DNA of 64,000 nucleotides from Lachnospiraceae bacterium (GTDB lineage: Bacteria; Bacillota; Clostridia; Lachnospirales; Lachnospiraceae): assembly GCA_017621075.1 (NCBI GenBank), contig JAGATV010000048.1:1-64000 (forward strand), read 5' to 3'. Made by a program: the position numbers and the translations under genes. Shown here piece by piece: positions 8,458 through 26,271 of the stretch. The notes under the pieces were generated by a model. It was not told the DNA's origin and did no database searches. It saw only the letters and a list, made by a program, of their open reading frames with translations. Within the stretch, counting starts at the first letter, position 1; every line of letters starts with the position of its first letter.

Positions 8458-9612
8458 ATGAAAATACTCTTTTATGATATGGGAAGCTATACTTACCGGG
8501 ATTTTTTGTACTATTTGGAAAAGGCTGGCCATACCTGCAAAACCGTCTATTATCATTTCCCCGATAAATTTGAGGACGATTTTTTTTGCAGACGGTTTGA
8601 CCAATATCTGACAGAGGACACTTATGATGTCGTCATCAGCGTCAATTTTTTCCCGCTGGTGGCTAAACTGTGCCATGAGCACCGTATCAAATATATCGCC
8701 TGGTGTTATGACAGTCCTCTGGAAGACCGCCTGAAAGAATATTTTGAGTATGAGACCAATTATATCTTTCTGTTTGACCGCATAGAAACAGCCCAGTATC
8801 AAGCCGAAGGATACACCCGGGTGTTTCACCTTCCCCTGGCGGTAAATGCAGATCGCCTGGCCTCCTTAACCTACACCCCGGCCCAGATTGCCGTCTACCG
8901 GTCAGACGTTTCCTTTGTGGGCCATCTGTACGATTCCCCGCTGGACGCACTGCTGTACAGCGCCGATCCTTACACAAAAGGCTATGTGGAGGGCATCCTT
9001 CAGGCACAGCTGCGCATCTACGGCTACTATTTTGTGGATGACCTGATCACCGATGATATTCTGGAAAACCTGAATACCTCTTTTAGGGCCATCGGACAAT
9101 CTTCCGTGACACTGAACCGCCGTGGACTTTCCTTTGCCATCGCATCCCAGATCACACATCTGGAACGGACCTTTTTGCTGGAGCAGATGGGCTCGCTTTA
9201 TGACGTCCGCTTTTACTCTACCGACCACTATCCGTTTTCCACCCCTGTCAAATCCTGCGGGCCCGTGAAATACCACACTGAGATGCCGGGAGTATTTCGA
9301 TACAGCAAGCTGAATCTCTGCCCTACATTAAAGAGCATTCAGTCCGGCATTCCGCTGCGCTCACTGGATATCATAGGGGCCGGCGGTGTACTTCTCTCCA
9401 ACTTCCAGCCGGAACTGGCAGAATATTTTGAAAATGAAACGGACGTGATCATGTATGACAGCATGGAAGACGCCTTTGCCAAAGCCGACTTTTACTTAAA
9501 ACACGATGATCTGCGCCGCAAAATCGCCCTGAACGGGCACGAAAAAATCTGCCGGGACTTTTCCTATCCCGACAGAATCAGAGAAATATTTAAAATTGCG
9601 CAATTAAGTTAA
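8458..9612 (+). CDS. CgeB/DUF3880-like GT-B glycosyltransferase
   Basis: 384 residues. The N-terminal half (YDVVISVNFFPLVAK, then IAWCYDSPLEDRL at about 80-92) matches the DUF3880 domain and the C-terminal half (SGIPLRSLDIIGAGGVLLSNF, then HEKICRDFSYPDRI) matches the Glyco_trans_1_2 domain of CgeB-like spore or surface glycosyltransferases. Probably cytoplasmic. Its TAA shares four bases (9609-9612) with the stop codon of the oppositely oriented gene, so the two units converge with no terminator between them. Confidence 0.8.
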   Translation: MKILFYDMGSYTYRDFLYYLEKAGHTCKTVYYHFPDKFEDDFFCRRFDQYLTEDTYDVVISVNFFPLVAKLCHEHRIKYIAWCYDSPLEDRLKEYFEYETNYIFLFDRIETAQYQAEGYTRVFHLPLAVNADRLASLTYTPAQIAVYRSDVSFVGHLYDSPLDALLYSADPYTKGYVEGILQAQLRIYGYYFVDDLITDDILENLNTSFRAIGQSSVTLNRRGLSFAIASQITHLERTFLLEQMGSLYDVRFYSTDHYPFSTPVKSCGPVKYHTEMPGVFRYSKLNLCPTLKSIQSGIPLRSLDIIGAGGVLLSNFQPELAEYFENETDVIMYDSMEDAFAKADFYLKHDDLRRKIALNGHEKICRDFSYPDRIREIFKIAQLS

Positions 9613-10115
9613 GTGGTACAAGCCATCCCGCACTCCACTGATACTTCCTGCAGAATCGCAGATAATATTTCCGCATTCTTCTCCATTGCATGCTCATCTT
9701 CCCCAATCTGCCAACCCTGGATCTTTTTTAGGTATGGCAGATTGGGATATTTGTTTTTGAGCGCATCATAGTAAGCATCACCCACGCAGTAAAAGAACAT
9801 GGCAATACTCAATTGCTTCTCCAAATACTTTTCATTGGGCAGATTCTCATGAAGCAAAAGGTGAATCTGTTTACAGCTTAGGAGATTGTAGGATATGTTA
9901 TCCGTGAGAGTACATTGTTCAAAGCCCGCCAGGTCAGTTGTCACCAGAACATCCGGTGCAAACCCTTTCAACTCATTTATAAAAGGCTTCCTCACATTTT
10001 GCTTCATAAACAGAAGTTTCGTTTCGCCCTTTATGCTTTCTCTCAGTCTTGTTTCAAGCAATTCCCAACTTGCTCCGAATGCACTTTGTTCTTCTACTGC
10101 AATTGCAATTTTCAC
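9609..10115 (-). CDS. Small unknown protein, last gene of the AT-rich operon
   Basis: 168 residues from a GTG at 10115 (AAGGA seven bases upstream). Sequence such as PDVLVTTDLAGFEQ and FFYCVGDAYYDALKNKYPN suggests an alpha/beta Rossmann-like fold related to the N-terminal half of GT-B glycosyltransferases, but no donor-binding half is present. I do not assign a function. It follows the methyltransferase gene by 21 bases and ends the 18-gene operon. Confidence 0.7.
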   Translation of the reverse strand: MKIAIAVEEQSAFGASWELLETRLRESIKGETKLLFMKQNVRKPFINELKGFAPDVLVTTDLAGFEQCTLTDNISYNLLSCKQIHLLLHENLPNEKYLEKQLSIAMFFYCVGDAYYDALKNKYPNLPYLKKIQGWQIGEDEHAMEKNAEILSAILQEVSVECGMACTT

Positions 10116-10136
10116 GAATATATCCTTCCGTTTCTA

Positions 10137-11837
10137 TTATTGTTTCATAAGCCGCTTGATATTCTTTAATGCTTCCTCCCGGCTATTCCCCTTAAATCCG
10201 TTTATCTCCGCAATGAGGACAGGATCTATGATGACACTGTTAAACAATTCATCCAATTGTCCAAACTCCTTCCAGAGCATTGCAACCCCCATTCTATATG
10301 CTATCTCTTTAAGCGGCAACGCTTTGGAAGCCTCTTCGTAAGAGCAATAGAACTGCAGGATTGCCCTGTACAAAATGAACTTTGCCGGAATATGCTCCAA
10401 CTTCCACTCCTGGTCGAACCACCATATCCTCCCATCCTTCCAAAAGGCATTTCTCAGAATCATATCCGGATATCCCATCCTAAGAATGGGCCCATACTTC
10501 TCCCGGTCCCGCTCAACCCCCAATGCAAGAGTATACATCAGATTTTCTTCCCAGGATACTTCTTCCGAAGACTGCAGTATCTCTTTATAGATCAGATCCC
10601 AGATCTCGCAGATCTTTTCCACATCCTTTCGGCGGCTGGCTTCCAAAAGAATATCCTCCAAGGTTGGAGCTTCCAGATAGGCAGTCTCTAAGCTCTGTTC
10701 CAGCAGGCGGCTCTTCCATACGCAGAGTCCCCTTTCCTGCAAAGCCCTTTCATTTTCCAAAATTTCCTGTACATGCCCCTCTCCCAAAGGATGGAACAAC
10801 GGGAATTTTTCCACTGCAGTTTTTCCCCTGAACCTGGTCCCGATCTGATACTCAGGAAATCTCTTGCAGCTGAGGCTGGCAAATGTGATTTCCCCAACTC
10901 TTCCTTCTCCCGTACATTCCACCAAGAAGGAATTTGCAAAAAATTCAAACACGCCATTTCTGATCAGATCCCCGTATATTTTTTCCTCCTGCGCTACCAG
11001 GGTAGCTGCGTCCGGCACATAGTAATATTGTGTGTTCAGCAGATTTCCATTGGATGGAAGGCAATCCTGGGAGTATACTACTGTGGGCAGCTTATAATCC
11101 GGCATGGGATAATAAAAATAAACATTCTGAAAACCGCCTGCCCTGACCAATTCCTCCAGAGATGCCTTGGAAAAGGTCCGCACTTGTTTTTGAGATATGG
11201 AATACTGATTCATTCCCTCAAAGGGAATGCCGGTGTGATCTTCTCTTGCCCCGCACCAATACTTCAGTCCATATTGATTCTCGATGGCAATCAAAAGCTT
11301 TCCTTCCGGCTTTAACAGGCTTTTCACCTTCTTCAAAAAATCCAGATACGGATTTTCCGTGGCAGTGTAACTTCCCTGATACTCCAACACTCCGATTAAA
11401 GTGATGTAATCAAACTTCTTCTCAAAGGAAATCTCATTTAAATTGCCGACTATGATTTCCAGGTTATCCTTTTCACGGCAACGCAGCAGAGCACCGGTCG
11501 CCCGCCTTTTTGAAAGTTCTACTGCCGTCACTTCTTTACATCTGTCACACAGCATGCCGGTAATGGCCCCCATACCGCAGCCAATCTCCAGCACCGATGC
11601 CTCCGGATCAAAAGGATACCAATTTAGGATATTTTTTCTGACATGGCTCAGATGGTAATAGGCAGACCAGGAATAGTTGTCTGCAATTGCCTGCACATAA
11701 TCTTCCGGATCATTTTCCGAAATCAGGTGGATAATGGTATCCTCGATCTCGCCCTCAGAATACAGATCCTTATCGTGATACCAGGTAAGGTTGAATTTCG
11801 GTTTGGGATTTAATCTTTCTATGATTTCTTCGTACAT
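10137..11837 (-). CDS. SAM methyltransferase with a kinase-like C-terminal half
   Basis: 566 residues. A class I methyltransferase domain (about 60-260) is clear: VLEIGCGMGAITG is the SAM-binding loop, TAVELS the acidic strand end, and LLIAIENQYG a later strand. The C-terminal part (about 320-560) carries a pattern like aminoglycoside phosphotransferase/choline kinases: a Lys-bearing strand (AVEKFPLF), then PDMILRNAFWKDGRIWWFDQEW-type spacing, where D...N...D would be catalytic and metal residues. The kinase reading is inference. An in-frame TTG at 11843 is too close to the GGGATG site; ATG 11837 is preferred. Expected to methylate and possibly phosphorylate the decoration built by the operon. 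Confidence 0.75.
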   Translation of the reverse strand: MYEEIIERLNPKPKFNLTWYHDKDLYSEGEIEDTIIHLISENDPEDYVQAIADNYSWSAYYHLSHVRKNILNWYPFDPEASVLEIGCGMGAITGMLCDRCKEVTAVELSKRRATGALLRCREKDNLEIIVGNLNEISFEKKFDYITLIGVLEYQGSYTATENPYLDFLKKVKSLLKPEGKLLIAIENQYGLKYWCGAREDHTGIPFEGMNQYSISQKQVRTFSKASLEELVRAGGFQNVYFYYPMPDYKLPTVVYSQDCLPSNGNLLNTQYYYVPDAATLVAQEEKIYGDLIRNGVFEFFANSFLVECTGEGRVGEITFASLSCKRFPEYQIGTRFRGKTAVEKFPLFHPLGEGHVQEILENERALQERGLCVWKSRLLEQSLETAYLEAPTLEDILLEASRRKDVEKICEIWDLIYKEILQSSEEVSWEENLMYTLALGVERDREKYGPILRMGYPDMILRNAFWKDGRIWWFDQEWKLEHIPAKFILYRAILQFYCSYEEASKALPLKEIAYRMGVAMLWKEFGQLDELFNSVIIDPVLIAEINGFKGNSREEALKNIKRLMKQ

Positions 11838-11851
11838 TAACAATCATCCCT

Positions 11852-13381
11852 TTAAATAATGTCTTTTTTTAGCTTCTGATAAATGTTCTTTCCGATCGTT
11901 CCTTCCAGATTCGGAAATGCTTTTCGCACGTCCGCCATCCGTTCTTCATATAAAGGGTCTTCCCCATCCAAAACCATTTGAATGAATTTAGGAAGCTTTG
12001 GTTCTTCACCCGCCGCTGCCTTATAATAATTATGGGTATAGTCGACCGGTGACTGTTTGCAATTATCTGCATTCAACCTATTTTGATATATATATATGGG
12101 CTTACCCAAAATCATGTACTCAGGAATAATGGAACTATAAGTCGTAATCAGCGCATCTGACAGTCCGAACGAAACCTTATATTCTCCGTTCTCATCCAGC
12201 ACGGCATTGTCAGATTCGTTGATTCTTTGCTCTAATTTTCTCACAAATTCCAACGTTCCATAAAGATTCCGGCTCTCCAGGGTCGCTTTCATAAGAGGAT
12301 GCGGACGCCAGATCAATGCACATCCTTCTCTGTTAAGCAGTTGATCAAATATCTGCTCATGATACCATTTCGCATAATCCTTTTTCCCCGGGTGCTCTGC
12401 CTCATAGATATAACCTCTGATAAAATAGGACAAATGCGTATTGAGAAGAAACACCTTTCGTCCACTCAATTTTTCTTTCCAGCTTTCCGGACAACCAGGT
12501 TCCTTCTTCATTTCCTCTACAATGGCATCTACCTTCGGTGCTCCCAGGGCAATCAGTTTTTTCCTGTCCACTCCATGGTCTATATATATCTGCTTTACCC
12601 TTTCCGATTGTAACAATGTATAATCTGCCACTTCAACCCCATTGGTATCACACATAAAAGCTCCGTCTCTGGGGCTGTAATATCCCATCATTCCATAGGG
12701 ACTGTATATCAGACGTTCTGTATACTTTTTCAGATTATAAGAATAATATTGCTCCGGCACTCTGGTTACATTGTTCATATCATCATACGGATTATGAATA
12801 AATATCATATCCGGCTGTTCCTGGGCCACATTATACCGGCTATAATGCACAATGGGAACATTCTTAGGAAACAATTCCGCTTCATAATGAAGCTTAACTT
12901 TGTTGCAATCACTATCCAATGTGTAGTAAGGGATCACCACTACCGTGGCTTCACATTCCGCATCCTCACTGGCCGCTTTCCAAACGCTCTCCAAACTAGT
13001 CCACATCGCTGCCTTATACGGAAAGAATGCCACCTTCAATCGTACCTTGATGTTGTTACCGATATCATGACGCACATTGTCTATCCGCTCATCCAATTCC
13101 TTTGCAATATCCGGAATTCTGTCTTTGGGATATTCTTCCATTTCATTGCTGATGAAAAATAATTTTTCACAATATGCTTCAAGCTGTTTTACTATCTCTT
13201 CCTGACCAGGCTCAAACTGCTCGATGGTATCCCCAATCAATACAGCACAATCCTGGCAATCTGCCAAAAGATTCTGCACCCTGGTGTATTCCTTTTTCTT
13301 CAGATATACTCGGATTTCTTTATGTGCCTCCTGCAATGTAGCAAGTAATTGCATAATCTGTGTCTTTACCGATTTTCTCAT
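11852..13381 (-). CDS. CDP-glycerol glycerophosphotransferase-like protein (TagB/TagF type)
   Basis: 509 residues. The N-terminal ~140 are helical and rich in charged residues; the C-terminal ~360 match the TagB/TagF GT-B fold: IFIHNPYDDMN, LGAPKVDAI, LIWRPHPLMK and DALITTYSSIIPEYMILGKPIYIY (the last shown in parts) are the characteristic loops of CDP-glycerol:polyglycerophosphate transferases. These enzymes transfer a phospho-alditol from a CDP donor. In this operon, with a nucleotidyltransferase at the far end, it is the natural candidate for placing a CDP-activated phospho- or phosphono-group on a glycan. ATG 13381 behind AGAGGAAAAAAT is preferred over the upstream GTG-frame start at 13402. 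Confidence 0.82.
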   Translation of the reverse strand: MRKSVKTQIMQLLATLQEAHKEIRVYLKKKEYTRVQNLLADCQDCAVLIGDTIEQFEPGQEEIVKQLEAYCEKLFFISNEMEEYPKDRIPDIAKELDERIDNVRHDIGNNIKVRLKVAFFPYKAAMWTSLESVWKAASEDAECEATVVVIPYYTLDSDCNKVKLHYEAELFPKNVPIVHYSRYNVAQEQPDMIFIHNPYDDMNNVTRVPEQYYSYNLKKYTERLIYSPYGMMGYYSPRDGAFMCDTNGVEVADYTLLQSERVKQIYIDHGVDRKKLIALGAPKVDAIVEEMKKEPGCPESWKEKLSGRKVFLLNTHLSYFIRGYIYEAEHPGKKDYAKWYHEQIFDQLLNREGCALIWRPHPLMKATLESRNLYGTLEFVRKLEQRINESDNAVLDENGEYKVSFGLSDALITTYSSIIPEYMILGKPIYIYQNRLNADNCKQSPVDYTHNYYKAAAGEEPKLPKFIQMVLDGEDPLYEERMADVRKAFPNLEGTIGKNIYQKLKKDII

Positions 13382-13395
13382 ATTTTTTCCTCTGA

Positions 13396-14640
13396 CTACC
13401 ACTCTTCCCGAAGTTGCTTTATCTTGTTACAGACGGAATAGTATGCATATATATACTCTTCAAATGTCATTTTTCTAATTCCGTTATAAAGCACTATATC
13501 ATATAAGGTGTCCTTATTGCACCACTCCAACCCCAAATGCTTTGCGACACTTGGATATACAGGGACCTCCGTGCAATGGCCCTTATACATCCTACATGCC
13601 GGGTTATCCGCATCCTGTCTTACCGCTTCCACCTCTCCGGCATCCATACCAATACACTCCAGTATCCTTTTTACCACTTCCCAGACAAGATCCATCTGCA
13701 TGTGGGTCATATCGCGATACAGCATCTGTTTCGTATATCTCTCCTTAATATAAGAAGACATCTTTATGTCGCAGCCGTCTTCCTCATATTCTAACATGCG
13801 CATCATCATATTGATATGATTCCTGACCTGTTCTTCTGTGTAAAAATCCTCAGCGGTCAACGCTGCTACAATTTCCTCTATATCTTTTCCCTCTTTGATC
13901 ATACGGTTGATATTGGCATCTCCGTACTCAAAAGGGCCATGGGTTTTATAGCTTTTATCTGTCAGGAAATATTCATTCCTGGCTTTTTCCCTGTTTGCCT
14001 TCATTTGAGGCCAATACAATCTGACAAGCAGGCTGGGCACCACCACGATCCTGCAAGTCTCAGGCAATTCTTCACGGCTGAAAAACTTTAAATCTTCCTC
14101 ATCATGGCGTATACAGATATATAAATCACACAGGCCGTGAAGATAGCTGATGGTTTTCAAAGACCACCTGCTCTTCCAATAATGCGAAGCAAATCGGAAT
14201 ACATGATATTCATCAGTAAATCCTTTCACTTCTCTGATAAAATCAAATGTCATGGCCATCTGGCAATTTCCTGCCATAATCGCGATTTTCTTATCCGTCA
14301 AAAATACTTCTAATACCGTTGCCTCTATGTATTCCTCAAATATCTGCAGGCCGTTAGCCAGCATCTGGGTTTCAACATGCACGAAAGGCGATGAAAATAC
14401 AACGATATAATCATTCGCACCTCCTTGATAATCCTTCCACTCCATAATAGGCACCGTCTGCTCATCATCCAGATAGTCAGGATGGCATCTTAGCTCCGTC
14501 AGCCCTCCCTTTATATGGAATATATCCCTATATTTCTGATAAAATGCCTTTGCTGCATCCTCACACCCCCAGAGGAAAATATCAGCAGTCTCCACTTTTT
14601 TTCTTACGGTTTCCCTTATCTGATCTGCATCCCTTTTCAT
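13396..14640 (-). CDS. WcbI-like putative acyltransferase, copy C (GNCQ intact)
   Basis: 414 residues. The core motif IAIMAGNCQMAM (about 119-130) followed by an LLVRLYWPQM segment about 110 residues later fits the WcbI family, polysaccharide-biosynthesis proteins that bind CoA and are putative acetyl/acyltransferases. The N-terminal ~110 residues look like a small Rossmann-type module (ADIFLWGCEDAAKAFYQ). The C-terminus has the block VYPSVAKHLGLEWCNKDTLY shared with the two paralogues at 21139 and 22432. Start ATG 14640 overlaps the ACP stop (ATGA) with GAGGAG upstream, tying it to ACP 14637-14882. Confidence 0.75.
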   Translation of the reverse strand: MKRDADQIRETVRKKVETADIFLWGCEDAAKAFYQKYRDIFHIKGGLTELRCHPDYLDDEQTVPIMEWKDYQGGANDYIVVFSSPFVHVETQMLANGLQIFEEYIEATVLEVFLTDKKIAIMAGNCQMAMTFDFIREVKGFTDEYHVFRFASHYWKSRWSLKTISYLHGLCDLYICIRHDEEDLKFFSREELPETCRIVVVPSLLVRLYWPQMKANREKARNEYFLTDKSYKTHGPFEYGDANINRMIKEGKDIEEIVAALTAEDFYTEEQVRNHINMMMRMLEYEEDGCDIKMSSYIKERYTKQMLYRDMTHMQMDLVWEVVKRILECIGMDAGEVEAVRQDADNPACRMYKGHCTEVPVYPSVAKHLGLEWCNKDTLYDIVLYNGIRKMTFEEYIYAYYSVCNKIKQLREEW

Positions 14641-14882
14641 CCGCACTCCTCACAAATATAGTCAATGAGCTCACCTATACACTTCAATCCTCTTGCCTTT
14701 CCTACATCAAATCGGATGTTATATCTTTCTCCAATCATAGTCAGGATATTGATTTGTTCATAAGAATCCCATCCGTCAATGTCCTCTGCCGTTGTCAGTT
14801 CGGAAATATCCAATTCGTCTTTCTCAAAAATTTCTTTCTGCAGAATTTCTTTCAGATCCTTCAATATCTGTTCTCTATCCAT
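14637..14882 (-). CDS. Acyl carrier protein, ACP4
   Basis: 81 residues from ATG 14882 (AGGTGA eight bases upstream; an upstream GTG frame start is rejected). GWDSYEQINIL holds the Asp-Ser phosphopantetheine attachment site, here followed by Tyr rather than Leu. Acidic, helical, typical carrier-protein size. Placed between an adenylating enzyme (14898) and a WcbI-like transferase (13396, ATGA overlap), which suggests the flow ligase to ACP to transferase. Confidence 0.9.
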   Translation of the reverse strand: MDREQILKDLKEILQKEIFEKDELDISELTTAEDIDGWDSYEQINILTMIGERYNIRFDVGKARGLKCIGELIDYICEECG

Positions 14883-14897
14883 GTTTCTCTTCACCTG

Positions 14898-16286
14898 TCA
14901 CAATTTGCTGTATAGTATTTTGCCGGCTTCGTTCCTGGGAAGCTTTTCAATATAACACACTTTGAATGCGCTGGAATTAATATTGGTCTTGTCTGAGATA
15001 TAGCGTCTGATCTTATCATGATCCTTCTCGGTGGTCACATATATCTCCATACACTCATCATTCCCAATACAGGCACATTCTACGTCAAAAGCAGACTTGA
15101 TAATATTCTCACACTCATCAAGCCCCACCCGATAGCCCCATAATTTTAAAAAGCGCTTCTTTCTCCCTACGATATAAAAGAATCCATCCTTGTCCGTCTT
15201 TACCATGTCACCCGTATATAAAATGCCATGTCTCTCATCTCCCAGTATCAGATCTTCTCCCGATTGAGCATACCCCAAGGTAACATTAGGGCCTTCGTAT
15301 ACCATTTCTCCGATGGTATACGGTTCTGTAATCTCATTTCCGCTCTCATCCACCAGGAACAAATGGCCGTTAGGAATGGCCTTCCCAATACTTCCACATT
15401 TACTCAAAGCATATTTCGGAGGCAGCCATGCCATTCTGGCGCTCCCTTCCGTCTGTCCGTAAGTGACAATAAACCTCCTGCCGGTATTTTGAGCATACTC
15501 GGCAAACTCTTTGTGCAGTTCTTCATTCAGTTTTCCGCCCCCCTGGGAAATAGTCCTTAAAGAAGGCAGCTCCATTCTGAAAAAACGCAGCTTCTTTAAT
15601 ATTTCATAATAATACGGAACATTTGTAATACTGGTTGCCTCATTCGTTTTAAGGAACTCCCAGTATCCCGGATTTAATGGATTCATAGAAGTAAGCAGTA
15701 CCGTGGCTCCCGAATACAAGTGGCTATTCAGCACCGATAATCCATAGGTATAGTTAATCGGCAGATCCAACATCGGCTTTTCCATATCGTCCAGTTCAAA
15801 AAAAGCAGAAATATTTCTTGCCTGTGCTTCTAAATTTCCATAGGAATGTCTCACCAGCTTGGGACTGCCCGTGGAGCCGGATGTAGTCAACAAAAGAGAT
15901 AATTCCTCATATAACGGATATGATTTTAAACCGGTAGCCACCAGTACATACTGATACCGTTCCAGCAAAATCCTCTCATGATCCTCTACCATGCTTACAG
16001 GTTTCCAAATGTATTCCGGATGATATACCCGAACCAGCTCTCCCAATAATTGCCGATCCATAGAAGCTCCCAACATCAACGGAACGATATGATGTATCAT
16101 GGCTCCCAGATATCCTGCCGCCGCCCCTACGCAATTGCTGCACAGGACAAATATCAGAGTTCTTCTACCGATCACCTCATAAAAATTTTTCCCAAAATTG
16201 ATGATTTCTTCATAAGAAACTATCTGCTTCCCGCTATCTGTCAATGCGATTTTTTTCCCATCTTTTTTATCAAGCTCCAGGAACAT
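14898..16286 (-). CDS. AMP-forming acyl/aminoacyl-ACP ligase
   Basis: 462 residues of the ANL (acyl-CoA synthetase/NRPS adenylation) superfamily. The phosphate-binding loop LLTTSGSTGSPK (about 152-163), the VTYGQTEGSARM motif, YTGDMVKTDKDG, the hinge region RKKRFLKLWGYRVGLDE and the catalytic Lys of NEAGKILYSKL at the C-terminus are all present. It would activate a carboxylic acid with ATP and load the adjacent ACP4. Substrate not predictable by eye. Confidence 0.85.
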   Translation of the reverse strand: MFLELDKKDGKKIALTDSGKQIVSYEEIINFGKNFYEVIGRRTLIFVLCSNCVGAAAGYLGAMIHHIVPLMLGASMDRQLLGELVRVYHPEYIWKPVSMVEDHERILLERYQYVLVATGLKSYPLYEELSLLLTTSGSTGSPKLVRHSYGNLEAQARNISAFFELDDMEKPMLDLPINYTYGLSVLNSHLYSGATVLLTSMNPLNPGYWEFLKTNEATSITNVPYYYEILKKLRFFRMELPSLRTISQGGGKLNEELHKEFAEYAQNTGRRFIVTYGQTEGSARMAWLPPKYALSKCGSIGKAIPNGHLFLVDESGNEITEPYTIGEMVYEGPNVTLGYAQSGEDLILGDERHGILYTGDMVKTDKDGFFYIVGRKKRFLKLWGYRVGLDECENIIKSAFDVECACIGNDECMEIYVTTEKDHDKIRRYISDKTNINSSAFKVCYIEKLPRNEAGKILYSKL

Positions 16287-16334
16287 ATTTTATCCTCCGC
16301 AATACAATGATACATAATGTCCTACCCTATTGGC

Positions 16335-17349: not shown

Positions 17350-17363
17350 TTTCTCTTTTCCTC

Positions 17364-18221: not shown

Positions 18222-19728
18222 TTAAATACACTTCCTTTAGCTTTTTCCTGCCAATCTTTCCATTTGCGTTATACGGAAGTTTCCCTAAATTGACAACGAG
18301 GTTCGGAATCATGTATTCAGGAACTTTAGCTTTTAATGCAGCTTTTACTTCCTTATCTTCCATTTTCTTTCCCACATAAAAAAGAATGATTCTTCCTTTC
18401 TCATCATCATATATACAGGCACAGGTCTCTATTCCTTTGATATTGGAAGCTGCTGTTTCTATCTCCCCCAATTCAATCCTGTGACCCATGTGTTTAATTT
18501 GAAAATCCTTTCTTGAAACATACATCAATTCCCCGTATTCATTATATCTTACCAAATCCCCCGTCCTGTAGATAATCTCTGGGTACGCTTTATTTAAAGG
18601 ATTTTGTACAAACGCCTCTTTCGTCTTTTCGGGATTATTATAGTATCCCATGGCCAGCCCGGAACCTCTGATGCAAAGTTCACCAATTTCGTTTCCTTCC
18701 ACCAATACATTATGTTCATTCAATACCAATATATCAGTATTCTCGCAGGGGAACCCAATCGGCAGGGATGCATCATCCGCAAATTCTCGGTTGACCACAT
18801 AATAAGTACATGCATCCGTAGCCTCACATGGGCCATACAAATTTACGAACATCGCATCAGGCAAGGCTTCCCGCCATACATTTAACTGCTTGTTCGGCAT
18901 TACCTCGCCGCAGAACAGTATCCTGTCCAAATATACCGGCTTTATTTTATTTAGCGCTCTCAAATTTGCCACCACACACAAGGCAGACGGAACCCAGAAA
19001 ATAATATTTATCTTCTTCTCATTCAAATACTCTATCAATTTAACCGGGAAAACAAACAAGCTCTTAGGTATAATATAATTCGTGCAGCCCATTTTCAAAG
19101 TACAATAAACATCCCCTATCGACAGATCAAAAAAGAATGGTGATTGATTTCCGAAATTATCCCGGCTAGTTATATGGAATTTATCGCTCATCCAATCAGT
19201 GAAATCAATAACTGCACGATGATTGATAATCACTCCTTTGGGCACCCCTGTCGATCCACTGGTAAACAATACATATACCGGATCAGTATCTGTCATCTGC
19301 TTTCTAATGGATTCCAAGCGATCATCGTCCACCTTTTGACAGACAGCCTCTTCATATATCACAATTTTCCCCGTATACTCCAACCCTTCCAGACGGCGTA
19401 CACTTTCTTTATCCGCAAGGATCGCTAAAGGGTTTAAGGTATTGAAAATTACCTGTATTCTTGACAAAGGCATTTCTGTGTCAATAGGGCAATAAAAATT
19501 TCCACTATACACAACCCCCATAAATGCAGCAATATTGTCTGCGCTCTTCTCCATAAAAACAACAACCGGCATGTGTGTTCTTTTATTCATGCTGATATAA
19601 CTGCCAATTGCCTGAGCCTTATGTAACATCTCTCCAAAGGACAGTTCCTTTTTAGAATCTACAAAAGCAGCTTTATCCGGGTATTTGGCTGCAGTCTCCT
19701 CCAAATATGTTAATACATTCGTTACCAT
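18190..19728 (-). CDS. Amino acid adenylation enzyme (NRPS/DltA-like)
   Basis: 512 residues, a free-standing adenylation domain without a fused carrier. Core motifs in order: FTSGSTGVPKG, YGPCEATDACTY, YRTGDL, RKDFQIKHMGHRIELGEIE and the catalytic Lys in NANGKIGR. Layout resembles DltA, which loads D-alanine on a separate carrier protein. Here ACP1/ACP2 are just upstream and ACP3 downstream. ATG 19728 follows AAGGAG; the TTG at 19743 would lack such a site. Substrate unknown; the pocket could be modelled. Confidence 0.87.
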   Translation of the reverse strand: MVTNVLTYLEETAAKYPDKAAFVDSKKELSFGEMLHKAQAIGSYISMNKRTHMPVVVFMEKSADNIAAFMGVVYSGNFYCPIDTEMPLSRIQVIFNTLNPLAILADKESVRRLEGLEYTGKIVIYEEAVCQKVDDDRLESIRKQMTDTDPVYVLFTSGSTGVPKGVIINHRAVIDFTDWMSDKFHITSRDNFGNQSPFFFDLSIGDVYCTLKMGCTNYIIPKSLFVFPVKLIEYLNEKKINIIFWVPSALCVVANLRALNKIKPVYLDRILFCGEVMPNKQLNVWREALPDAMFVNLYGPCEATDACTYYVVNREFADDASLPIGFPCENTDILVLNEHNVLVEGNEIGELCIRGSGLAMGYYNNPEKTKEAFVQNPLNKAYPEIIYRTGDLVRYNEYGELMYVSRKDFQIKHMGHRIELGEIETAASNIKGIETCACIYDDEKGRIILFYVGKKMEDKEVKAALKAKVPEYMIPNLVVNLGKLPYNANGKIGRKKLKEVYLSGKIEEYRGI

Positions 19729-19744
19729 TTCCTGCTCCTTCAAC

Positions 19745-20611
19745 CTAGTTTCTGGCTTTATCCGTTTCCCTTACCCACTCATCTACATACTTATTCACAA
19801 ATTGATACCCCAGACTCTCATGATAGCGTAATGAAGCCTCATTTTCCAGCAATATCCATGCTTGTATATATTCGATGCCATTGTCATGCAGCCATTTATA
19901 CCGATAATAAGATAACATCGGTGCCAACCCATGCATCTTAAATTCTTCGGCAATCGCCACACCTTCCCCATAAGCGACCCCATTGTCAATAAAGCATACG
20001 TTTACGGCACACATCTCTTCTTTATTATTAAATATACACAGATACGCACCTTTTTGGAACTTTTTCTTTTCATCCGCTGTCCTGTAATCAATCTGATAAT
20101 CTTTAATGATTCTGGAAGCCAGCACCATTTCTTCTATCTGTTCATAGCAGTTTTCATCAGCCATAACACATCGATATCCTTTTGCTTCCATCTTTCGCAC
20201 ATACTTTTCAAGTCTGCTGCTCTTTTCAAATAAAGTCTGGACCACTCCTCTGATTTGAACATCCGTTCCCCTCTTTTCAAAATGCAATTCCTCAAGATTC
20301 TTTTCTATCTGCCCCAGACACGGCTCTTCTTTCCCTTTACGGTATACATTCTTTATTATTGCTCTTTTGTCCATGACCGGTATGGTAAATTTCTGTTGCG
20401 CATCCACATACAGACACACTCTATAATACCTTTCCTCATCCAATATTAACAGGAAACCCTTTCCTGCCGGTTCATAATACGCCTGTCCCACATCAATATA
20501 TCTTTGAACATCAGCCGGCATAAAGTAATTGTTTGAAAAAGGATTCTTACATTCCATCCGTGCCTGTCTTACCAGATTTTTGTAATCATCAAGCCTTTCT
20601 ATTCTCTCCAT
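19745..20611 (-). CDS. GNAT-like acyltransferase, copy A
   Basis: 288 residues, start ATG 20611 behind GGAGGCTTGAAGT. Paralogue of the 17364 gene over its full length: similar N-terminus, YYEPAGKGFLLILDEERYYR against YYETVENALMFITDEEAYYR (given as comparison segments), and a C-terminal loop FKMHGLAPMLSYY followed by ENEASLRYHESLGYQ. The last motif is typical of GNAT enzymes. Located between ACP2 and the adenylation gene. Confidence 0.72.
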   Translation of the reverse strand: MERIERLDDYKNLVRQARMECKNPFSNNYFMPADVQRYIDVGQAYYEPAGKGFLLILDEERYYRVCLYVDAQQKFTIPVMDKRAIIKNVYRKGKEEPCLGQIEKNLEELHFEKRGTDVQIRGVVQTLFEKSSRLEKYVRKMEAKGYRCVMADENCYEQIEEMVLASRIIKDYQIDYRTADEKKKFQKGAYLCIFNNKEEMCAVNVCFIDNGVAYGEGVAIAEEFKMHGLAPMLSYYRYKWLHDNGIEYIQAWILLENEASLRYHESLGYQFVNKYVDEWVRETDKARN

Positions 20612-20625
20612 ACTTCAAGCCTCCG

Positions 20626-20859
20626 CTATTGCAGGTTCCTTTTTATTAAATCTACAATAGCTGCCACTGTTTTGAAATTGTCCGGAGTAATCTCCTCCGG
20701 ATCTATCTCCATGTCAAAAGCCTCTTCCAATTCCATTACGATATTTACAATTTCAAAGGAGTCTATCATACCTTCTTCCAAGAGATCCGACTCCAGATTC
20801 TCCCAAATCCGGGGATTTACCTCACACAATACCTTAACAACCTTATCTTTGATATCCAT
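20626..20859 (-). CDS. Acyl carrier protein, ACP2
   Basis: 77 residues, EGMIDSFEIVNIV with the DSF-type phosphopantetheine site, followed by an ELEEAFDMEIDPEE acidic helix. Very similar in layout to ACP1 directly upstream (22-base gap), so the pair looks like a recent tandem duplication. Confidence 0.92.
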   Translation of the reverse strand: MDIKDKVVKVLCEVNPRIWENLESDLLEEGMIDSFEIVNIVMELEEAFDMEIDPEEITPDNFKTVAAIVDLIKRNLQ

Positions 20860-20881
20860 ATCTTTTTCCTCCCGGCTTTCA

Positions 20882-21118
20882 TCATATTCTATTATCTATA
20901 ATACTTTTTACCAATGCAATAATCGTATTCGCTGTTTGAAAATTTTCCGGCACAATCAAATCTGCATCAATGACAATGTCAAACGCTTCTTCCAAGGCCA
21001 CCACCAATTTTACGATATCAAAGGAATCCAAAATATCAGAGGCCAACAGATCCCTGTCCATATCTTCGATCAGTTCCATGCTGATATCACTCAATATCTC
21101 TATAATTTGTTTTTCCAT
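20882..21118 (-). CDS. Acyl carrier protein, ACP1
   Basis: 78 residues, SDILDSFDIVKLV with the carrier Ser and ALEEAFDIVIDADL helix. Ends INPENFQ-type loop (VPENFQTANTI) shared with ACP2 (TPDNFKTVAAI). First ACP gene of the operon, 20 bases after a WcbI-like gene. Confidence 0.92.
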   Translation of the reverse strand: MEKQIIEILSDISMELIEDMDRDLLASDILDSFDIVKLVVALEEAFDIVIDADLIVPENFQTANTIIALVKSIIDNRI

Positions 21119-21138
21119 AATACTTTCTTCCTTTCTTT

Positions 21139-22422
21139 TTATGCTATGGTTTTATCGGAATTTATCCTTTTCTGTAACTCTTCATCTGCCCCCATAAGCT
21201 GCATCAGATCCATTGCCCGATACAGATATTCTGCCAGAAAACGGACATACTCTTCCTTAAGCATATATCTCACATGATAGTATGTAGTTACTCTATATTT
21301 CTTATTGGTCAACTCTTCTTCCAACCCCAATGCTTTCTGTACGCTGGGATAAATCAAAATCTCACTCCCGGAATTTTGTTCTATCAGATTCTGCCTTTCC
21401 ACCTTGTTCAGTGACACTCCGGGCAATCCGAGTCTTTCCAACAATTCATCTGTCACATAAGAGACCACCGGCTCATTCCATTCATTCAGATTTCTGCATA
21501 AGCATTCTTTTTGATGCGCCTGTATAAAATCTCCCAGTCTGATATCATCAGACGCCTCCATTGTTTTCAACCGTTTTACCTCGAGGTCAAAATACTTTTT
21601 CACCTCTTCCCGAGAATAAAAATCCGTATCCAACACCTGCGCGACGATATCTTCTACACTCCGCTTTTCTTTGCAGAATCTTTCTATTTCCTTATCGACT
21701 CTTGAGAATGCAAATGTTTCATAATTTAAATCCAAGCGTTCCCGCTCCCTCAGCATAAAATCGCTGAATATATCTCTATTCCGGATAATTTGTGGAAAAT
21801 ATCCGCCAAATCCATGATCTGATACGGTAATGACCCGGCATTGAGGACTTAAAGCATTTTTCCCCAATATCTTAAAAGGAAATCTTTCTTTTTCGCAGGA
21901 GGAATATACATAAACATCACACCACCTGCACACATGCATATACTCCTGCAGGCGATTCATATACTGCTCCCATATATCACTCTCTATGTAATAGAGTATG
22001 CTGTACTTATCAGGGGCTTGACTACCCTGCTCAAGCAACGCACATACCTGCCCAAGCAACTGGGTCCCCATACAGACCAACAGATCTTTCTGATACACCA
22101 AAGCCTCTACCAGTTCCTGACTGATAAAATCTCTATACTCTACTTTCCCCAGATGTTTTAACCTTCTCAGCAAAGTGCCAAATCGGGTTCTATCACAGAC
22201 GATTATCAGTTCTTCTTCAAAAACCATATCCTCCACTAATATTGTCTTTACACCTGCCACCATGTAAGACTGAAGCTTAACTTCCTTTTTGTGATCCGTT
22301 ATGACTGCTTTTATTTTTAACACAGACTGATACCGTTCTAAAAAATTACCGATCTCCTCAGAATCTCCATACAGAACAATTTCTCTTTCTATTATGTTTC
22401 CGCATACTGTATTTAATTTCAT
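21139..22422 (-). CDS. WcbI-like paralogue, copy B (core motif degenerate)
   Basis: 427 residues (ATG 22422 chosen: AAGGAG five bases upstream; 22425 would be only two). Same three-part layout as the copies at 13396 and 22432: Rossmann-like start (IVLYGDSEEIGNFLERY), central WcbI-like region, and the IYPSVQKALGLEEELTNKKY block near the C-terminus. The expected GNCQ is LLVCMGTQLLGQV here, so Asn and Cys are lost. Either an inactive partner subunit or a divergent enzyme. Confidence 0.65.
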   Translation of the reverse strand: MKLNTVCGNIIEREIVLYGDSEEIGNFLERYQSVLKIKAVITDHKKEVKLQSYMVAGVKTILVEDMVFEEELIIVCDRTRFGTLLRRLKHLGKVEYRDFISQELVEALVYQKDLLVCMGTQLLGQVCALLEQGSQAPDKYSILYYIESDIWEQYMNRLQEYMHVCRWCDVYVYSSCEKERFPFKILGKNALSPQCRVITVSDHGFGGYFPQIIRNRDIFSDFMLRERERLDLNYETFAFSRVDKEIERFCKEKRSVEDIVAQVLDTDFYSREEVKKYFDLEVKRLKTMEASDDIRLGDFIQAHQKECLCRNLNEWNEPVVSYVTDELLERLGLPGVSLNKVERQNLIEQNSGSEILIYPSVQKALGLEEELTNKKYRVTTYYHVRYMLKEEYVRFLAEYLYRAMDLMQLMGADEELQKRINSDKTIA

Positions 22423-22431
22423 CATTGCTCC

Positions 22432-23676
22432 TTACCACATTTTCATTATTTCCATGACTTTTCTGGTATACTCGATATAATGTTCTGTATATTCTTGAAA
22501 TGTCATATAGACAACTTTGTTGCCTGTCAAGATTTCATACCGTGTATCCTTATTCACAAAATGTAAGTGCAAGCATTTAGCAACACTGGGATATATCGGA
22601 ACATCTCCACTCTGATGGATATGCAATGGCGACCCTTCTTCCAGTTTCTCCACATCTTCATCGGAAATTTCAATCTCTCTCAACAACCGTCTGACATACT
22701 CCCAGATAATACATTTGTTGGGATGAAAAGCATTCTGGTATAGCATTTCCCGCTGATAATTCTCCCGTATAAAATCCGCAATCTTTACGTTCACGGCTCT
22801 TTCTGCAATATCTACCAGTTTCAATGCCATCTTATAATTTCTTTTGACCTCCTCTTCCGAATAGAAACCATCCGATGACAAAGTTCCCACGATTTCCTTC
22901 GTAGGCTTTCCTTCCAATACCATCCTGTTAATGTTGATATCTTCACGCCGGTACAGGGTATGATAAAAGTCCAGGCTTCTCTCTGCATTATAAGAGTGCA
23001 GATACAACTTGTTATATACATCTATTTTGGTCTCGACCTGTGGCCAGTACAAAGATACCACCAGATTGGAGACGCTCACTACTTTGCAGTCTGGCGGCAG
23101 CTCTTCCACGGATAGAGAATATGCACTATCATGATCCAACAATTTGGGAGTATAAACATACAGATCACAGATATCTTTTAAATGGTATAACAGCCGATTG
23201 GTCACAACCGCCTGGCCTTTTGCTGTCTGTGTATATACTGAGACATATTCCTTATCAAATGCCGAAACCTGTATAATGCAGCGATAAATGTCTCTCAAAA
23301 TGCATTGTCCATAAAACAATGCTATCCTTTTCCCGGTACAAACAGCATTTGCAATATTGGACTCCACAAAATGCTCGTACATCCGAAATCCTTCATTTAT
23401 CAGCTGCAGTTCTATTGTTCGAAATGCGATCGGTCCGCATACCACAATATACTCGTCCTCCCGGAATTCTTCCCTGCAGAATTTTCTGACATCCAATCTG
23501 CCCAGGAAAGTCGCTTCTCCCCATTCCTTTTCATAATTGCTTACGCAATGGGTAATATGTAACTTATCCTTATACTCATTATAAAATTCTTCTGCCACTT
23601 TTCCAGCGCCAAAAAGTATAACCTTCTTTGATGACAGTTTTTCTCGTACAAGTTCTTTTATCTGTTCCTTGATCAT
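22432..23676 (-). CDS. WcbI-like paralogue, copy A (GQC variant)
   Basis: 414 residues. VILFGAGKVAEEFYNEY (about 19-35) is a clear nucleotide-binding-like GxGxxA strand-loop; IALFYGQCILRDI (about 118-130) takes the place of the GNCQ motif; LVVSLYWPQVE and PIYPSVAKCLHLHFVNKDTRY are shared with copy C. The frame extends to 23745 into the upstream gene, but ATG 23676, just after that gene ends at 23706, is the likely start although its ribosome site is weak. Probable acyl transfer to a glycan, unproven. Confidence 0.68.
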   Translation of the reverse strand: MIKEQIKELVREKLSSKKVILFGAGKVAEEFYNEYKDKLHITHCVSNYEKEWGEATFLGRLDVRKFCREEFREDEYIVVCGPIAFRTIELQLINEGFRMYEHFVESNIANAVCTGKRIALFYGQCILRDIYRCIIQVSAFDKEYVSVYTQTAKGQAVVTNRLLYHLKDICDLYVYTPKLLDHDSAYSLSVEELPPDCKVVSVSNLVVSLYWPQVETKIDVYNKLYLHSYNAERSLDFYHTLYRREDININRMVLEGKPTKEIVGTLSSDGFYSEEEVKRNYKMALKLVDIAERAVNVKIADFIRENYQREMLYQNAFHPNKCIIWEYVRRLLREIEISDEDVEKLEEGSPLHIHQSGDVPIYPSVAKCLHLHFVNKDTRYEILTGNKVVYMTFQEYTEHYIEYTRKVMEIMKMW

Positions 23677-23705
23677 TATAATTTCCACACTCTCTGATAC
23701 ATTAT

Positions 23706-24491
23706 TTATAATGTCCGTCTCACCAGTTTGCCGTACTCGCCACATTTAGTGTGCAGCAGATCGTGATAACGGATCATCTTTTCGGACAGCGAAAATGTAT
23801 ATGCCATTTTTCCTTCTTCCGCCAATTTCTGCAACATATAATTACTAAGCAGCATATAAAAATTGCTGTTTCTGTACTCCGGTGCAATTATGGTCCCCCC
23901 CACCACCGCTATTCCTTCTGCCTCCGCATAAGTTGCACTATGGGCGACTATTCTCCCCTTATCCCTGATAATATAGCTACGTCCGGTATGAGTATGTATT
24001 CTTTCCGTCAACTGTGCTTCTAGGCCTTCCCGTGTATAGTGCCTTCCTATCTCCCTGTCCGTGCAGATCAACTCTGCGATCTCTCTCGTTTCCGATTCCA
24101 TGGCTTCACAAATGTCAACAGCAGCCGGAACTTCCCGGTATCTGTCCATTAGGAATACTGCCCCGTAAGCCGCTTCATATTCAGGACATTGCTTTTCCAG
24201 ACGCTCAATGATATCTTTTTTCCCAGAAAGCATTGCCACAGGATATTTTTCCAAAAGAGATTGGACTGCTTTTACATCAAAGGCAGCATCACGGCTGTAT
24301 ATCTGGAAACTATCATAATATTTCATTACTACCATCCGGATTTCTCTCGCTTCTTCCTGCAACCACACCTTTATATTGTCCGTAGCTATCCCATAATTCA
24401 TAATGTCAATATAAAGATAGACACAATCCTGCAAATTTTCCTCAAGATAATGCAGGATATCTTCCCGATCTTTCTCTTCTGCCACTCTCAT
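23706..24491 (-). CDS. GNAT family acetyltransferase
   Basis: 261 residues. C-terminal GNAT domain: GRSYIIRDKGRIVAHSATYAE strand pair (in parts), then GGTIIAPEYRNSNFYMLL as the acetyl-CoA loop. Distinct from the two paralogous GNATs at 17364 and 19745. ATG 24491 overlaps the aminotransferase stop as ATGA and has AAGGGA six bases upstream; the ATG at 24509 is less well placed. The tight link to the aminotransferase suggests it acetylates the amine that enzyme installs. Confidence 0.75.
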   Translation of the reverse strand: MRVAEEKDREDILHYLEENLQDCVYLYIDIMNYGIATDNIKVWLQEEAREIRMVVMKYYDSFQIYSRDAAFDVKAVQSLLEKYPVAMLSGKKDIIERLEKQCPEYEAAYGAVFLMDRYREVPAAVDICEAMESETREIAELICTDREIGRHYTREGLEAQLTERIHTHTGRSYIIRDKGRIVAHSATYAEAEGIAVVGGTIIAPEYRNSNFYMLLSNYMLQKLAEEGKMAYTFSLSEKMIRYHDLLHTKCGEYGKLVRRTL

Positions 24492-25552
24492 AACAATTCC
24501 CTTATACATTCCATAGCTTCCAGTAGCTTGTCATAATCTTCCCAACACACATTCCCCAAATGTCCTACCCGGATCAGCACCTCTTCCAACTCTCCCCCGC
24601 TGGGAGTGACTATGAAACCATAATCCTCCTTTAGATGGAGATACATTTCTTTTGCATGCGGTTTCAAAAGGATTGGGGTCAATGCATTGGACAATCGATA
24701 GACGGGAACTTCAAAGTCTCTCTGTTCCAGCTCCATCCTGAAGCGTACGGCCAGCGCATGACATTCTTCCTGCATTCTTTTCCATCCCGCTTTTTGGATT
24801 TGCTTTAATCTTTCATTCAGCTCCAATAATATCCCCACCGCCGGAGTAAAAGGAGTCTGGCCCCTCTTTAGATTCTCTATGCACATCTTGAAGTCAAAAT
24901 AGAGGGTGGACGGCTGTATCTTTAGGACCCGTTCTTCGTAAATCCGTTTACTGATCTCCACGATGGATATTCCCGGTGACAATGCCAGTGCCTTTTGGGA
25001 ACTGACGATCAACACATCGATAGCATACTGTGAAAAATCGACTTCATCTGCGCCATATGCGCTAACAGCATCCACCACAAAGTATAAATTATATTTTCTG
25101 CAATACTGTGCCAGCAAAGCTATATCATATAACTGGCCGGTAACAGTCTCATGCAGGTTTACAAGCAGTCCGCTATACCGACTTCCGTCAACTACTTCTA
25201 ACAACTCTTCTGTAAGTTCTTTTCCAAATTCCAATATCACTTCATCGTGAGGGATCTGATGTATGTTACAGATTTCTGCGAAGCGCCGACCAAAACTACC
25301 GCCATTTATCACCAATAACCGGTCTTCCTTGGTAAAGCAGTTCATTATTGCAGCTTCCATTGCTCCTGTTCCCGATGCCGTCAGGAAAACAGTCTTTGCA
25401 TCCTGCGGAGCATTTATGCTCCGCTTGAACATTTCCTCGTTTTCAAACATGATTTGCGAAAATTCCCGGGTTCTAAAATAAGGCAGCTGCCTGGATGCTG
25501 TCGCCAGCGTTTCTGGAAACATTTCAACCGGTCCGACCGTAAATAATTTCAT
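24488..25552 (-). CDS. Class V PLP aminotransferase, 2-aminoethylphosphonate transaminase-like
   Basis: 354 residues, fold type I class V. GTGAMEAAIMNC (about 61-72), HETVTGQLYDI, FVVDAVSAYGADEVD and the PLP-lysine in SSQKALALSPG (about 190-200) match PhnW (2-aminoethylphosphonate:pyruvate aminotransferase) and related alanine-glyoxylate enzymes. Overlaps the nucleotidyltransferase by ATGA (25549-25552). A cytidylyltransferase fused to a PhnW-like domain is known as PntC in phosphonate-glycan pathways; this looks like the same pair as two genes. No PEP mutase is in the window, so the substrate may differ. Confidence 0.82.
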   Translation of the reverse strand: MKLFTVGPVEMFPETLATASRQLPYFRTREFSQIMFENEEMFKRSINAPQDAKTVFLTASGTGAMEAAIMNCFTKEDRLLVINGGSFGRRFAEICNIHQIPHDEVILEFGKELTEELLEVVDGSRYSGLLVNLHETVTGQLYDIALLAQYCRKYNLYFVVDAVSAYGADEVDFSQYAIDVLIVSSQKALALSPGISIVEISKRIYEERVLKIQPSTLYFDFKMCIENLKRGQTPFTPAVGILLELNERLKQIQKAGWKRMQEECHALAVRFRMELEQRDFEVPVYRLSNALTPILLKPHAKEMYLHLKEDYGFIVTPSGGELEEVLIRVGHLGNVCWEDYDKLLEAMECIRELL

Positions 25553-26271
25553 GATTTATTCTCTTTCTGTGCAGCAAAATAGTTTAATATTCTCTCATAA
25601 TCATCAAAATAATCTATTTCCGACCAAAACAATCCTTCCACATCCTTGGTATAAATCCAATACTTATTTTCATGTGTAAAAGAATAGAGAACATCCTCCC
25701 ACCACAAATTGTGTTTTCCTTCCCCTATCAGCTGTACCAAACGTTCTGTAAAACAGGGCATAAATCGCTCTGTCACCTTGGATACTCCCACATACTCACA
25801 GCTTCTGTATTGCAGAGGCAGATCCTTTCCATATTTTCTGATACAGCCGCTGTCTGTGGTTGCAAAGAAATAGTCACCATTCTTCCTACGGGTCTTGTCC
25901 ACCATCATCACTGCTTCATGTTCGTCTTCCATTATCATCTGCAGAATCGTATTTGGAAAATATACATCCGCATTGATGATCAAACAATCTTCTCCCAGTT
26001 CCTCCCTTGCAAACCAAAGACTGGCTATACTGTTAGTCACATCATAAAAAGGATTGAAATAGTACTTAACTGTATAGTCTTTTAATGCCTCCCGTACCAG
26101 ATTTTGTTGGTATCCAACACATACCACCGTTTCAATTCCCCTTTTCTGAAGCATTTCAACCGTCAACTCAATCAAAGGTTTGCCATTGATCGGCAATGTT
26201 GACTTTGGTATTTCTTTTACCATTCTTGAGATTCTGGTTCCTTTTCCGGCAGCTAATAGAATCGCCTTCAT
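25549..26271 (-). CDS. Nucleotidyltransferase, LicC/PntC-like
   Basis: 240 residues. ILLAAGKGTR (about 4-13), PKSTLPINGKPLIE, the metal-binding INADVYF and a C-terminal WSEIDYFDDYE acidic motif are typical of sugar-phosphate nucleotidyltransferases of the LicC/PntC branch, which make CDP-choline or CDP-aminoethylphosphonate. First gene of the operon. With the CDP-glycerol transferase-like protein at 11852 it suggests a CDP-activated small head group. Base actually used is not visible from sequence. Confidence 0.83.
   Translation of the reverse strand: MKAILLAAGKGTRISRMVKEIPKSTLPINGKPLIELTVEMLQKRGIETVVCVGYQQNLVREALKDYTVKYYFNPFYDVTNSIASLWFAREELGEDCLIINADVYFPNTILQMIMEDEHEAVMMVDKTRRKNGDYFFATTDSGCIRKYGKDLPLQYRSCEYVGVSKVTERFMPCFTERLVQLIGEGKHNLWWEDVLYSFTHENKYWIYTKDVEGLFWSEIDYFDDYERILNYFAAQKENKS

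What the first reader, a model, noticed from the sequence alone, without database searches (positions are those of the whole stretch)
9609..26271. Candidate new system: ACP-dependent acyl decoration operon beside flagellin
Eighteen genes on one strand, with gaps of at most 48 bases and several ATGA overlaps. Seen together: LicC/PntC-like nucleotidyltransferase, PhnW-like aminotransferase, three GNATs, three WcbI-like proteins, four ACPs, two adenylating enzymes, an SDR, a TagF-like phosphotransferase and a methyltransferase. Each family is known; this combination I do not know. The reading: an acid is adenylated, loaded on an ACP, reduced, then transferred by GNAT/WcbI enzymes to an amine or hydroxyl of a CDP-activated head group that the TagF-like enzyme places on a glycan. 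Proximity to flagellin suggests the filament is the target.
Basis: partly seen in the sequence, partly recalled or inferred. Interest (0 to 1): 0.88.

Follow-up and report, generated by a model that had tools for sequence, protein, structure and literature searches.

The report
Flagellin-linked acyl-carrier decoration operon
A bacterium of the family Lachnospiraceae carries, beside its flagellin gene and probably switched on with it, an 18-gene set that most likely builds an amino-phosphate tag with acyl and amino-acid tails and attaches it to the flagellar filament, an elaborate variant of flagellin decorations known from other bacteria.

Summary
In detail: 18 same-strand genes, spacings -40 to +48 bases, beside a late flagellar gene cluster. 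The reading is partly supported and can be sharpened. (1) The flagellar link is more than proximity: the operon and flagellin leaders carry the window's only two exact TAAA-N-CCGATAT (sigma-D-like) sites and only two GCAAGGATGC (CsrA-site-like) motifs. (2) Four more operons were found: one fully syntenic at flagellin, one followed by flagellar rod genes, one with a FliD_C-like gene downstream, one without a flagellar neighbour in the range read. (3) The chemistry resembles the Type A flagellin modification (cytidylyltransferase plus TagF-like transferase), extended by a class V aminotransferase and soluble adenylating-enzyme, carrier-protein, GNAT and WcbI modules; the operons differ mainly in the acyl part. 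(4) A phosphonate head group is disfavoured, not excluded. (5) WcbI comes as Cys/His-complete and Cys/His-less types beside carrier proteins, suggesting what WcbI's unknown partner might be. Flagellin as target, and every substrate, remain inferred. New variant of a known kind.

The parts
26401..26428 (-). sigma-D-like promoter site of the operon (TAAA-N17-CCGATAT)
   Evidence: one of 2 exact matches in the window
26366..26375 (-). GCAAGGATGC leader motif, CsrA-site-like (consensus recalled)
   Evidence: one of 2 in the window; also in the G211 and G207 leaders
25549..26271 (-). g1, LicC/PntC-like nucleotidyltransferase
24488..25552 (-). g2, class V aminotransferase
23706..24509 (-). g3, GNATa (under the Pfam cut-off)
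22432..23745 (-). g4, WcbIa, Cys and His kept
21139..22425 (-). g5, WcbIb, Cys and His lost
20882..21118 (-). g6, carrier protein, DltC-like
20626..20859 (-). g7, carrier protein, DltC-like
19745..20611 (-). g8, GNATb
18190..19743 (-). g9, amino-acid adenylating enzyme (DltA/NRPS A-domain type)
17364..18221 (-). g10, GNATc, paralogue of g8
17110..17379 (-). g11, carrier-like protein (under cut-off, Ser kept)
16335..17096 (-). g12, SDR, FabG-like
14898..16286 (-). g13, second AMP-forming ligase
14637..14894 (-). g14, carrier-like protein (under cut-off, Ser kept)
13396..14646 (-). g15, WcbIc, Cys and His kept
11852..13402 (-). g16, TagF-like phosphotransferase
10137..11843 (-). g17, methyltransferase with C-terminal extension
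9609..10115 (-). g18, no family
26521..27591 (+). divergent GT2-TPR glycosyltransferase, candidate flagellin glycosyltransferase
27657..28490 (-). flagellin, proposed target
28688..28714 (-). sigma-D-like promoter site of flagellin
28518..28527 (-). GCAAGGATGC in the loop region of a predicted hairpin of the flagellin leader
32377..33055 (-). CsrA (32377-32631) and FliW (32597-33055)
7726..9612 (+). two facing glycosyltransferases (7726-8454, 8458-9612)

Best explanation
The operon makes and attaches an acylated amino-alkanol phosphate to a glycan on flagellin, in the cytoplasm before export. Proposed steps, all inferred from families and context: (a) g2 aminates a phosphorylated keto compound and g1 couples the amine phosphate to CMP; a small C3 compound such as serinol phosphate would fit, because relatives of g2 often sit beside a TagD-like cytidylyltransferase fused to a Gfo/Idh oxidoreductase. 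(b) The GT2-TPR enzyme starts the flagellin glycan and g16 (TagF-like) moves the amine phosphate onto it, as proposed for C. difficile CD0242 and CD0244. (c) g9 loads an amino acid on the DltC-like carriers g6/g7 and soluble GNATs (g3, g8, g10) form amides, a cytoplasmic stand-in for the membrane step of the Dlt system. (d) g13 loads a second acid on g11/g14, g12 reduces it, and WcbI proteins (g4 and g15 catalytic; g5 a Cys/His-less partner) use acyl-carriers to acylate hydroxyls. (e) g17 may methylate. Shown here: gene content, synteny, conserved residues, shared promoter-like site and leader motif. Inferred: every substrate, the order of steps, and the target.
For: Full synteny with the flagellin locus of G211; G209's operon followed by a flagellar rod-type gene; G207 with a FliD_C-like gene downstream. 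The only two exact TAAAN{14,18}CCGATAT sites in the window are those of operon and flagellin, and likewise the only two GCAAGGATGC, also in the G211 and G207 leaders. TagF with LicD recurs at flagellin loci of G165, G192 and G258 in the same genus. g1 resembles LicC and PntC; 23 of 27 loci with g2 relatives have a cytidylyl- or nucleotidyltransferase nearby, 11 of 27 LicD. Carrier Ser kept. No membrane-like segment in any operon protein and no polymer exporter among the window ORFs scanned, which fits a cytoplasmic acceptor. Type A model: PMC10714395 (abstract and passages).
Against: No mass or expression data. G210's operon has no flagellar match in 26 kb upstream (to the contig end) and 12 kb downstream, and lacks both leader motifs; G209 lacks GCAAGGATGC. 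A partial set (TagF, NTase, aminotransferase, FkbH, carrier, GNATa) lies in a TagGH-like, teichoic-type locus of G344. Window and G211 share one locus, so are not independent. The flagellin is short (277 aa) and only 6 of 52 residues between its Pfam domains are Ser/Thr. The promoter and leader patterns were chosen after seeing the sequences. g9's closest solved relatives are NRPS adenylation domains, with DltA behind, so its substrate is open.
Confidence: 0.52

Rival explanations
1. The same chemistry, but the acceptor is a cell-surface glycopolymer (teichoic-acid-like or capsule) and flagellin is only a neighbour.
For: G210's operon is not beside flagellar genes in the range read; G344 has a related gene set beside TagG/TagH-like ABC genes (by eye) and TagF; g2 relatives sit with LicD or TagF in loci without flagellar genes.
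Against: No polymerase or exporter family among the window ORFs scanned; flagellar synteny and shared promoter-like and leader motifs.
Confidence: 0.25
2. The head group is 2-aminoethylphosphonate, activated by g1 as CMP-AEP as PntC does.
For: g1 and g2 match the two halves of PntC (6pd1); PhnW-AepZ is g2's best NCBIfam model, 128 bits against a cut-off of 361; PEP mutase genes exist in G209 and G210. The three operon genomes without it are 84-87% complete, so a missing gene is possible.
Against: No PEP mutase in G000 or G211, only a sub-threshold hit in G207; no mutase domain near 27 g2 relatives; in G209 and G233 the mutase has its own aminotransferase and nucleotidyltransferase beside it, and the G233 one is only 26% identical to g2.
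Confidence: 0.12
3. A secondary-metabolite (lipopeptide-like) cluster that happens to sit beside flagellin.
For: Stand-alone adenylating enzymes and carriers; in G209 KAS III, carboxyltransferase and acyltransferase.
Against: No NRPS condensation, thioesterase or transporter family among the 18 genes; TagF-like g16 and flagellar synteny.
Confidence: 0.08

Closest known systems
C. difficile Type A and P. aeruginosa PAO1 b-type flagellin modification (cd0240-cd0244, pa1088-pa1091)
   Same: Glycosyltransferase, cytidylyltransferase, methyltransferase and TagF-like gene next to flagellin; phosphodiester to an amino compound (PMC10714395, abstract and passages; PMC11833859, abstract and start of introduction)
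   Different: Adds an aminotransferase, carriers, two adenylating enzymes, GNATs and WcbI proteins; no ThrH-like CD0241 counterpart was recognised among the 18 genes; no direct sequence comparison with the cd genes was made
Flagellin glycosylation islands with acyl genes (Enterobacteriaceae; C. jejuni dimethylglyceric acid on pseudaminic acid)
   Same: Carrier proteins, CoA ligases and FabG-like reductases in flagellin islands (PMC4875605, passages); acyl group on a flagellin glycan (PMC3068675, passages)
   Different: Those act on sugars such as pseudaminic acid; here the pairing is with a cytidylyltransferase, aminotransferase, TagF and WcbI
Dlt D-alanylation system
   Same: Adenylating enzyme g9 and DltC-like carriers
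   Different: No membrane acyltransferase; soluble GNATs instead
PntC / LicC head-group activation
   Same: Nucleotidyltransferase next to class V aminotransferase (PMC6697681, passages)
   Different: No PEP mutase in 3 of 5 operon genomes
WcbI (B. pseudomallei capsule protein, PDB 4bqn)
   Same: Cys14 and His201 positions kept in g4 and g15 types; the paper reports CoA binding, no activity and a proposed unknown partner (PMC4104973, passages)
   Different: Extra N-terminal region, carrier genes alongside, and a Cys/His-less sister (g5)

Membership tests
Type A-like flagellin phosphodiester modification | Cytidylyltransferase and TagF-like gene at a flagellin locus | tested here: met
   g1, g16, flagellin
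Type A-like flagellin phosphodiester modification | ThrH/PSP-like phosphotransferase (CD0241) | tested here: not met
   no such Pfam family among the 18 genes
Type A-like flagellin phosphodiester modification | Phosphodiester on flagellin | not testable with these tools
   needs mass spectrometry
Phosphonate tailoring (PntC) pathway | PEP mutase in the genome | tested here: not met
   none in G000; over cut-off in 2 of 5 operon genomes; genomes incomplete
Dlt system | DltA and DltC equivalog scores | tested here: not met
   best DltA 346 bits against cut-off 476, best DltC 48 against 68
Dlt system | Membrane transferase DltB | tested here: not met
   no such family and no membrane-like segment among the 18
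WcbI | Pfam WcbI score | tested here: met
   g4 45, g5 51.7, g15 64.4 bits against 29.2
WcbI | Cys14 and His201 | tested here: met
   g4 and g15; not met by g5
Acyl carrier proteins | Phosphopantetheine attachment Ser and PP-binding score | tested here: inconclusive
   Ser invariant in all four; score passed by g6 and g7, not by g11 and g14
sigma-D/CsrA flagellar regulon | Promoter-like site and leader motif shared with flagellin | tested here: inconclusive
   both present, patterns chosen after inspection; not seen in G210

The most novel reading that the evidence does not exclude
The operons are interchangeable, dissociated assembly lines in which carrier-bound amino acids and acyl chains are stitched by soluble GNATs and by WcbI pairs (one catalytic, one Cys/His-less) onto a CDP-activated amino-alkanol, giving each lineage a different flagellin tail under flagellin's own sigma-D and CsrA control; WcbI is thereby a carrier-protein-dependent acyltransferase, and its missing partner is an acyl carrier or the sister WcbI.
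Probability: 0.33. Interest if true: 0.82.

Novelty: new variant of a known kind. Interest (0 to 1): 0.62.

Why it matters
If true, flagellin of some Lachnospiraceae carries swappable acyl and aminoacyl tails built on carrier proteins, and Type A chemistry is one member of a wider CDP-alkanol class of flagellin tags. It also makes a stalled question testable: WcbI binds CoA but showed no activity alone, and these operons suggest which partners to add.

Tried and rejected
Phosphonate head group: tested by PEP mutase searches in the own genome, eight other genomes and around 27 g2-relative loci; disfavoured. LoaP-type antitermination: only one NusG in the genome, the one in the window; the genome is 87% complete. 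Known riboswitch: no Rfam match at gathering score in 7000-42000. Promoter patterns: the form ending CCGATAA missed both sites and a 3-mismatch version gave 52 matches against 51 expected; the CCGATAT form was chosen after looking at the upstream sequences, so its shuffle figure (4 of 100 shuffles reach 2) flatters it, and so does that of GCAAGGATGC (3 of 100). The looser CARGGATG gave 19 matches against 7.5 expected, spread over the window. The sigma-70 scan gave 59 sites against 50.4 expected. Leader folding: no more stable than shuffles (z -0.07 and -0.46 for the operon leader, -0.93 for the flagellin leader). General WcbI-carrier linkage: of eight WcbI settings seen (five operons, G092, G752, G060), six have a carrier-like gene; G752 and G060 gave none with this operon's carriers as queries, and G092's scores under the curated cut-offs. 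g17 as an operon marker: its N-terminal part is near-universal in the genus (57 of 61 genomes), so only two full-length relatives were informative, and the G169 one had no flagellar match in 40 kb. Structure prediction never ran, so no fold evidence is claimed. In one search one protein was taken from the wrong locus (L032 for L031); the right one was scanned.
Full report
Observation. All 18 ORFs exist at the given coordinates on the minus strand and are spaced from -40 to +48 bases. Upstream lie a divergent GT2-TPR gene, then flagellin, FlgN (just under its cut-off), FliS, FliD, CsrA, FliW, a Flagellin_N protein and two FlgK-like genes. Downstream two glycosyltransferases face the operon. The operon has 41.8% GC against 47.6-47.7% in its flanks.

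Relatives. A g15-type WcbI was found in 2 of 150 family genomes, the window's own and G092. That makes five distinct operons including the window's. They share NTase-AT5-GNATa, then WcbIa-WcbIb with small carriers, and later ACPc-SDR-AMPligase2-WcbIc. Of the four others, three have TagF; in G207 no TagF matched and a LicD gene lies upstream. Inserts differ: KAS III, carboxyltransferase and acyltransferase in G209; FkbH in G210 and G211; MaoC in G211; ketopantoate-reductase-like in G210; a PLP decarboxylase in G207. G211 is longer and has two WcbIa-WcbIb pairs. The acyl part is the variable module.

Flagellar link. G211 matches the window on both sides: FliD, FliS, FlgN, flagellin at 89% and GT2-TPR on one, the facing glycosyltransferase at 77% on the other. 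G209's operon starts at a contig end and is followed by an MCP-like gene and a flagellar rod-type gene; further ORFs look by eye like fliE to fliJ. G207's contig ends upstream and holds a FliD_C-like protein downstream. G210 has no flagellar match in 26 kb upstream (to the contig end) and 12 kb downstream; a TnpB-like ORF precedes it. Window and G211 share one locus and are not independent. In the same genus, flagellin loci of G165, G192 and G258 hold TagF with LicD; G165 also has Rpe, IspD/TarI-like and alcohol dehydrogenase genes there, like a CDP-pentitol cassette. Of 30 TagF loci examined, 28 without the window and G211, these 3 have flagellar neighbours within 1.5 kb.

Regulation. Exact TAAAN{14,18}CCGATAT occurs twice in the window, at the operon (26401-26428) and at flagellin (28688-28714). 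Genome-wide it occurs 15 times against 2 for the reversed pattern, and 4 of the 15 lie outside ORFs and upstream of one. GCAAGGATGC also occurs only in those two leaders of the window, and in the leaders of G211 and G207, not of G209 and G210. By eye G211 has a one-mismatch promoter form, G207 and G209 only a CGATA-type core, G210 none. In B. subtilis CsrA binds the hag leader and FliW relieves it (PMC6529632, passages); calling GCAAGGATGC a CsrA site rests on the recalled consensus. The operon leader also ends in a hairpin with a T-run in three genomes, unexplained. The patterns were chosen after seeing the sequences, so the statistics are only suggestive.

Head group. g1's best solved relatives are LicC and PntC, and g2's include the other half of PntC, behind an E-value 8e-97 match to an uncharacterised aminotransferase, 3f0h. 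PEP mutase is absent in G000 and G211 and under cut-off in G207, but present in G209 and G210; the three without it are 84-87% complete. No mutase domain lies near 27 g2 relatives. Of those 27 loci, 23 have a cytidylyl- or nucleotidyltransferase within 1.5 kb (22 by tblastn, 1 by eye; exceptions L076, L085, L092, L094), 12 of these the TagD-type, and 11 of 27 have LicD. The TagD-type protein scanned is fused to a Gfo/Idh oxidoreductase (L074), which suggests oxidation of a CDP-polyol followed by amination; serinol phosphate is my inference. A g3-like GNAT accompanies the aminotransferase in G344, G158 and L081.

Acylation. g6 and g7 score best with DltC models; g9 with DltA (under cut-off) and the amino-acid adenylation domain (over cut-off). 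Among solved structures g9 is nearer to NRPS adenylation domains (GrsA 260 bits) than to DltA (222 bits). No operon protein has a membrane-like segment. WcbI Cys14 and His201 (PMC4104973, passages) align to residues kept in 4 of 4 WcbIa, 4 of 4 WcbIc and G092, and lost in 4 of 4 WcbIb of the alignment; G207's three proteins and G211's other pair fit the same pattern by eye. WcbI is rare: 3 of 391 class genomes.

Literature. The searches found Type A, enterobacterial islands with acyl genes and the C. jejuni glyceric-acid modification; none of the papers held all of 'flagellin', 'Lachnospiraceae', 'glycosylation' and 'acyl carrier protein'. PMC13317340 on Clostridium flagellar islands has no 'acyl carrier' in its main text (term search). 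The library lacks most subscription papers, so this is no proof of absence.

Verdict. A flagellin-linked, Type A-like decoration system extended by carrier-protein acyl and aminoacyl chemistry: a new variant of a known kind, with WcbI's partner problem as its most testable offshoot.

Noticed in passing
window 26290-26355 (-), and the G211 and G207 operon leaders: A hairpin followed by a T-run between promoter-like site and first gene, in three genomes, looks like an attenuator; fold not more stable than shuffles.
   Followed up: partly
L106 (G344:C7:72000-91000): TagF, NTase, aminotransferase (both split by frame), FkbH, carrier-like, LicD-like and GNATa genes beside ABC-export and TarI-like genes: the module in a teichoic-type locus.
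   Followed up: partly
L031 8318-13176 (G165): A different cassette (TagF-like, Rpe, IspD/TarI-like, alcohol dehydrogenase, LicD) between FlgN and flagellin in the same genus.
   Followed up: partly
L074 9223-10563 and similar loci: TagD-like cytidylyltransferase fused to a Gfo/Idh oxidoreductase beside g2-type aminotransferases.
   Followed up: partly
L037 1-245 (upstream of the G209 operon): A long inverted repeat seen by eye just before the first gene.
   Followed up: no
L038 5685-7034 (G210): A TnpB/Cas12f-like ORF just upstream of the operon that is not flagellar-linked.
   Followed up: no
window 34662-38379 (-): Two FlgK-like genes in tandem.
   Followed up: no
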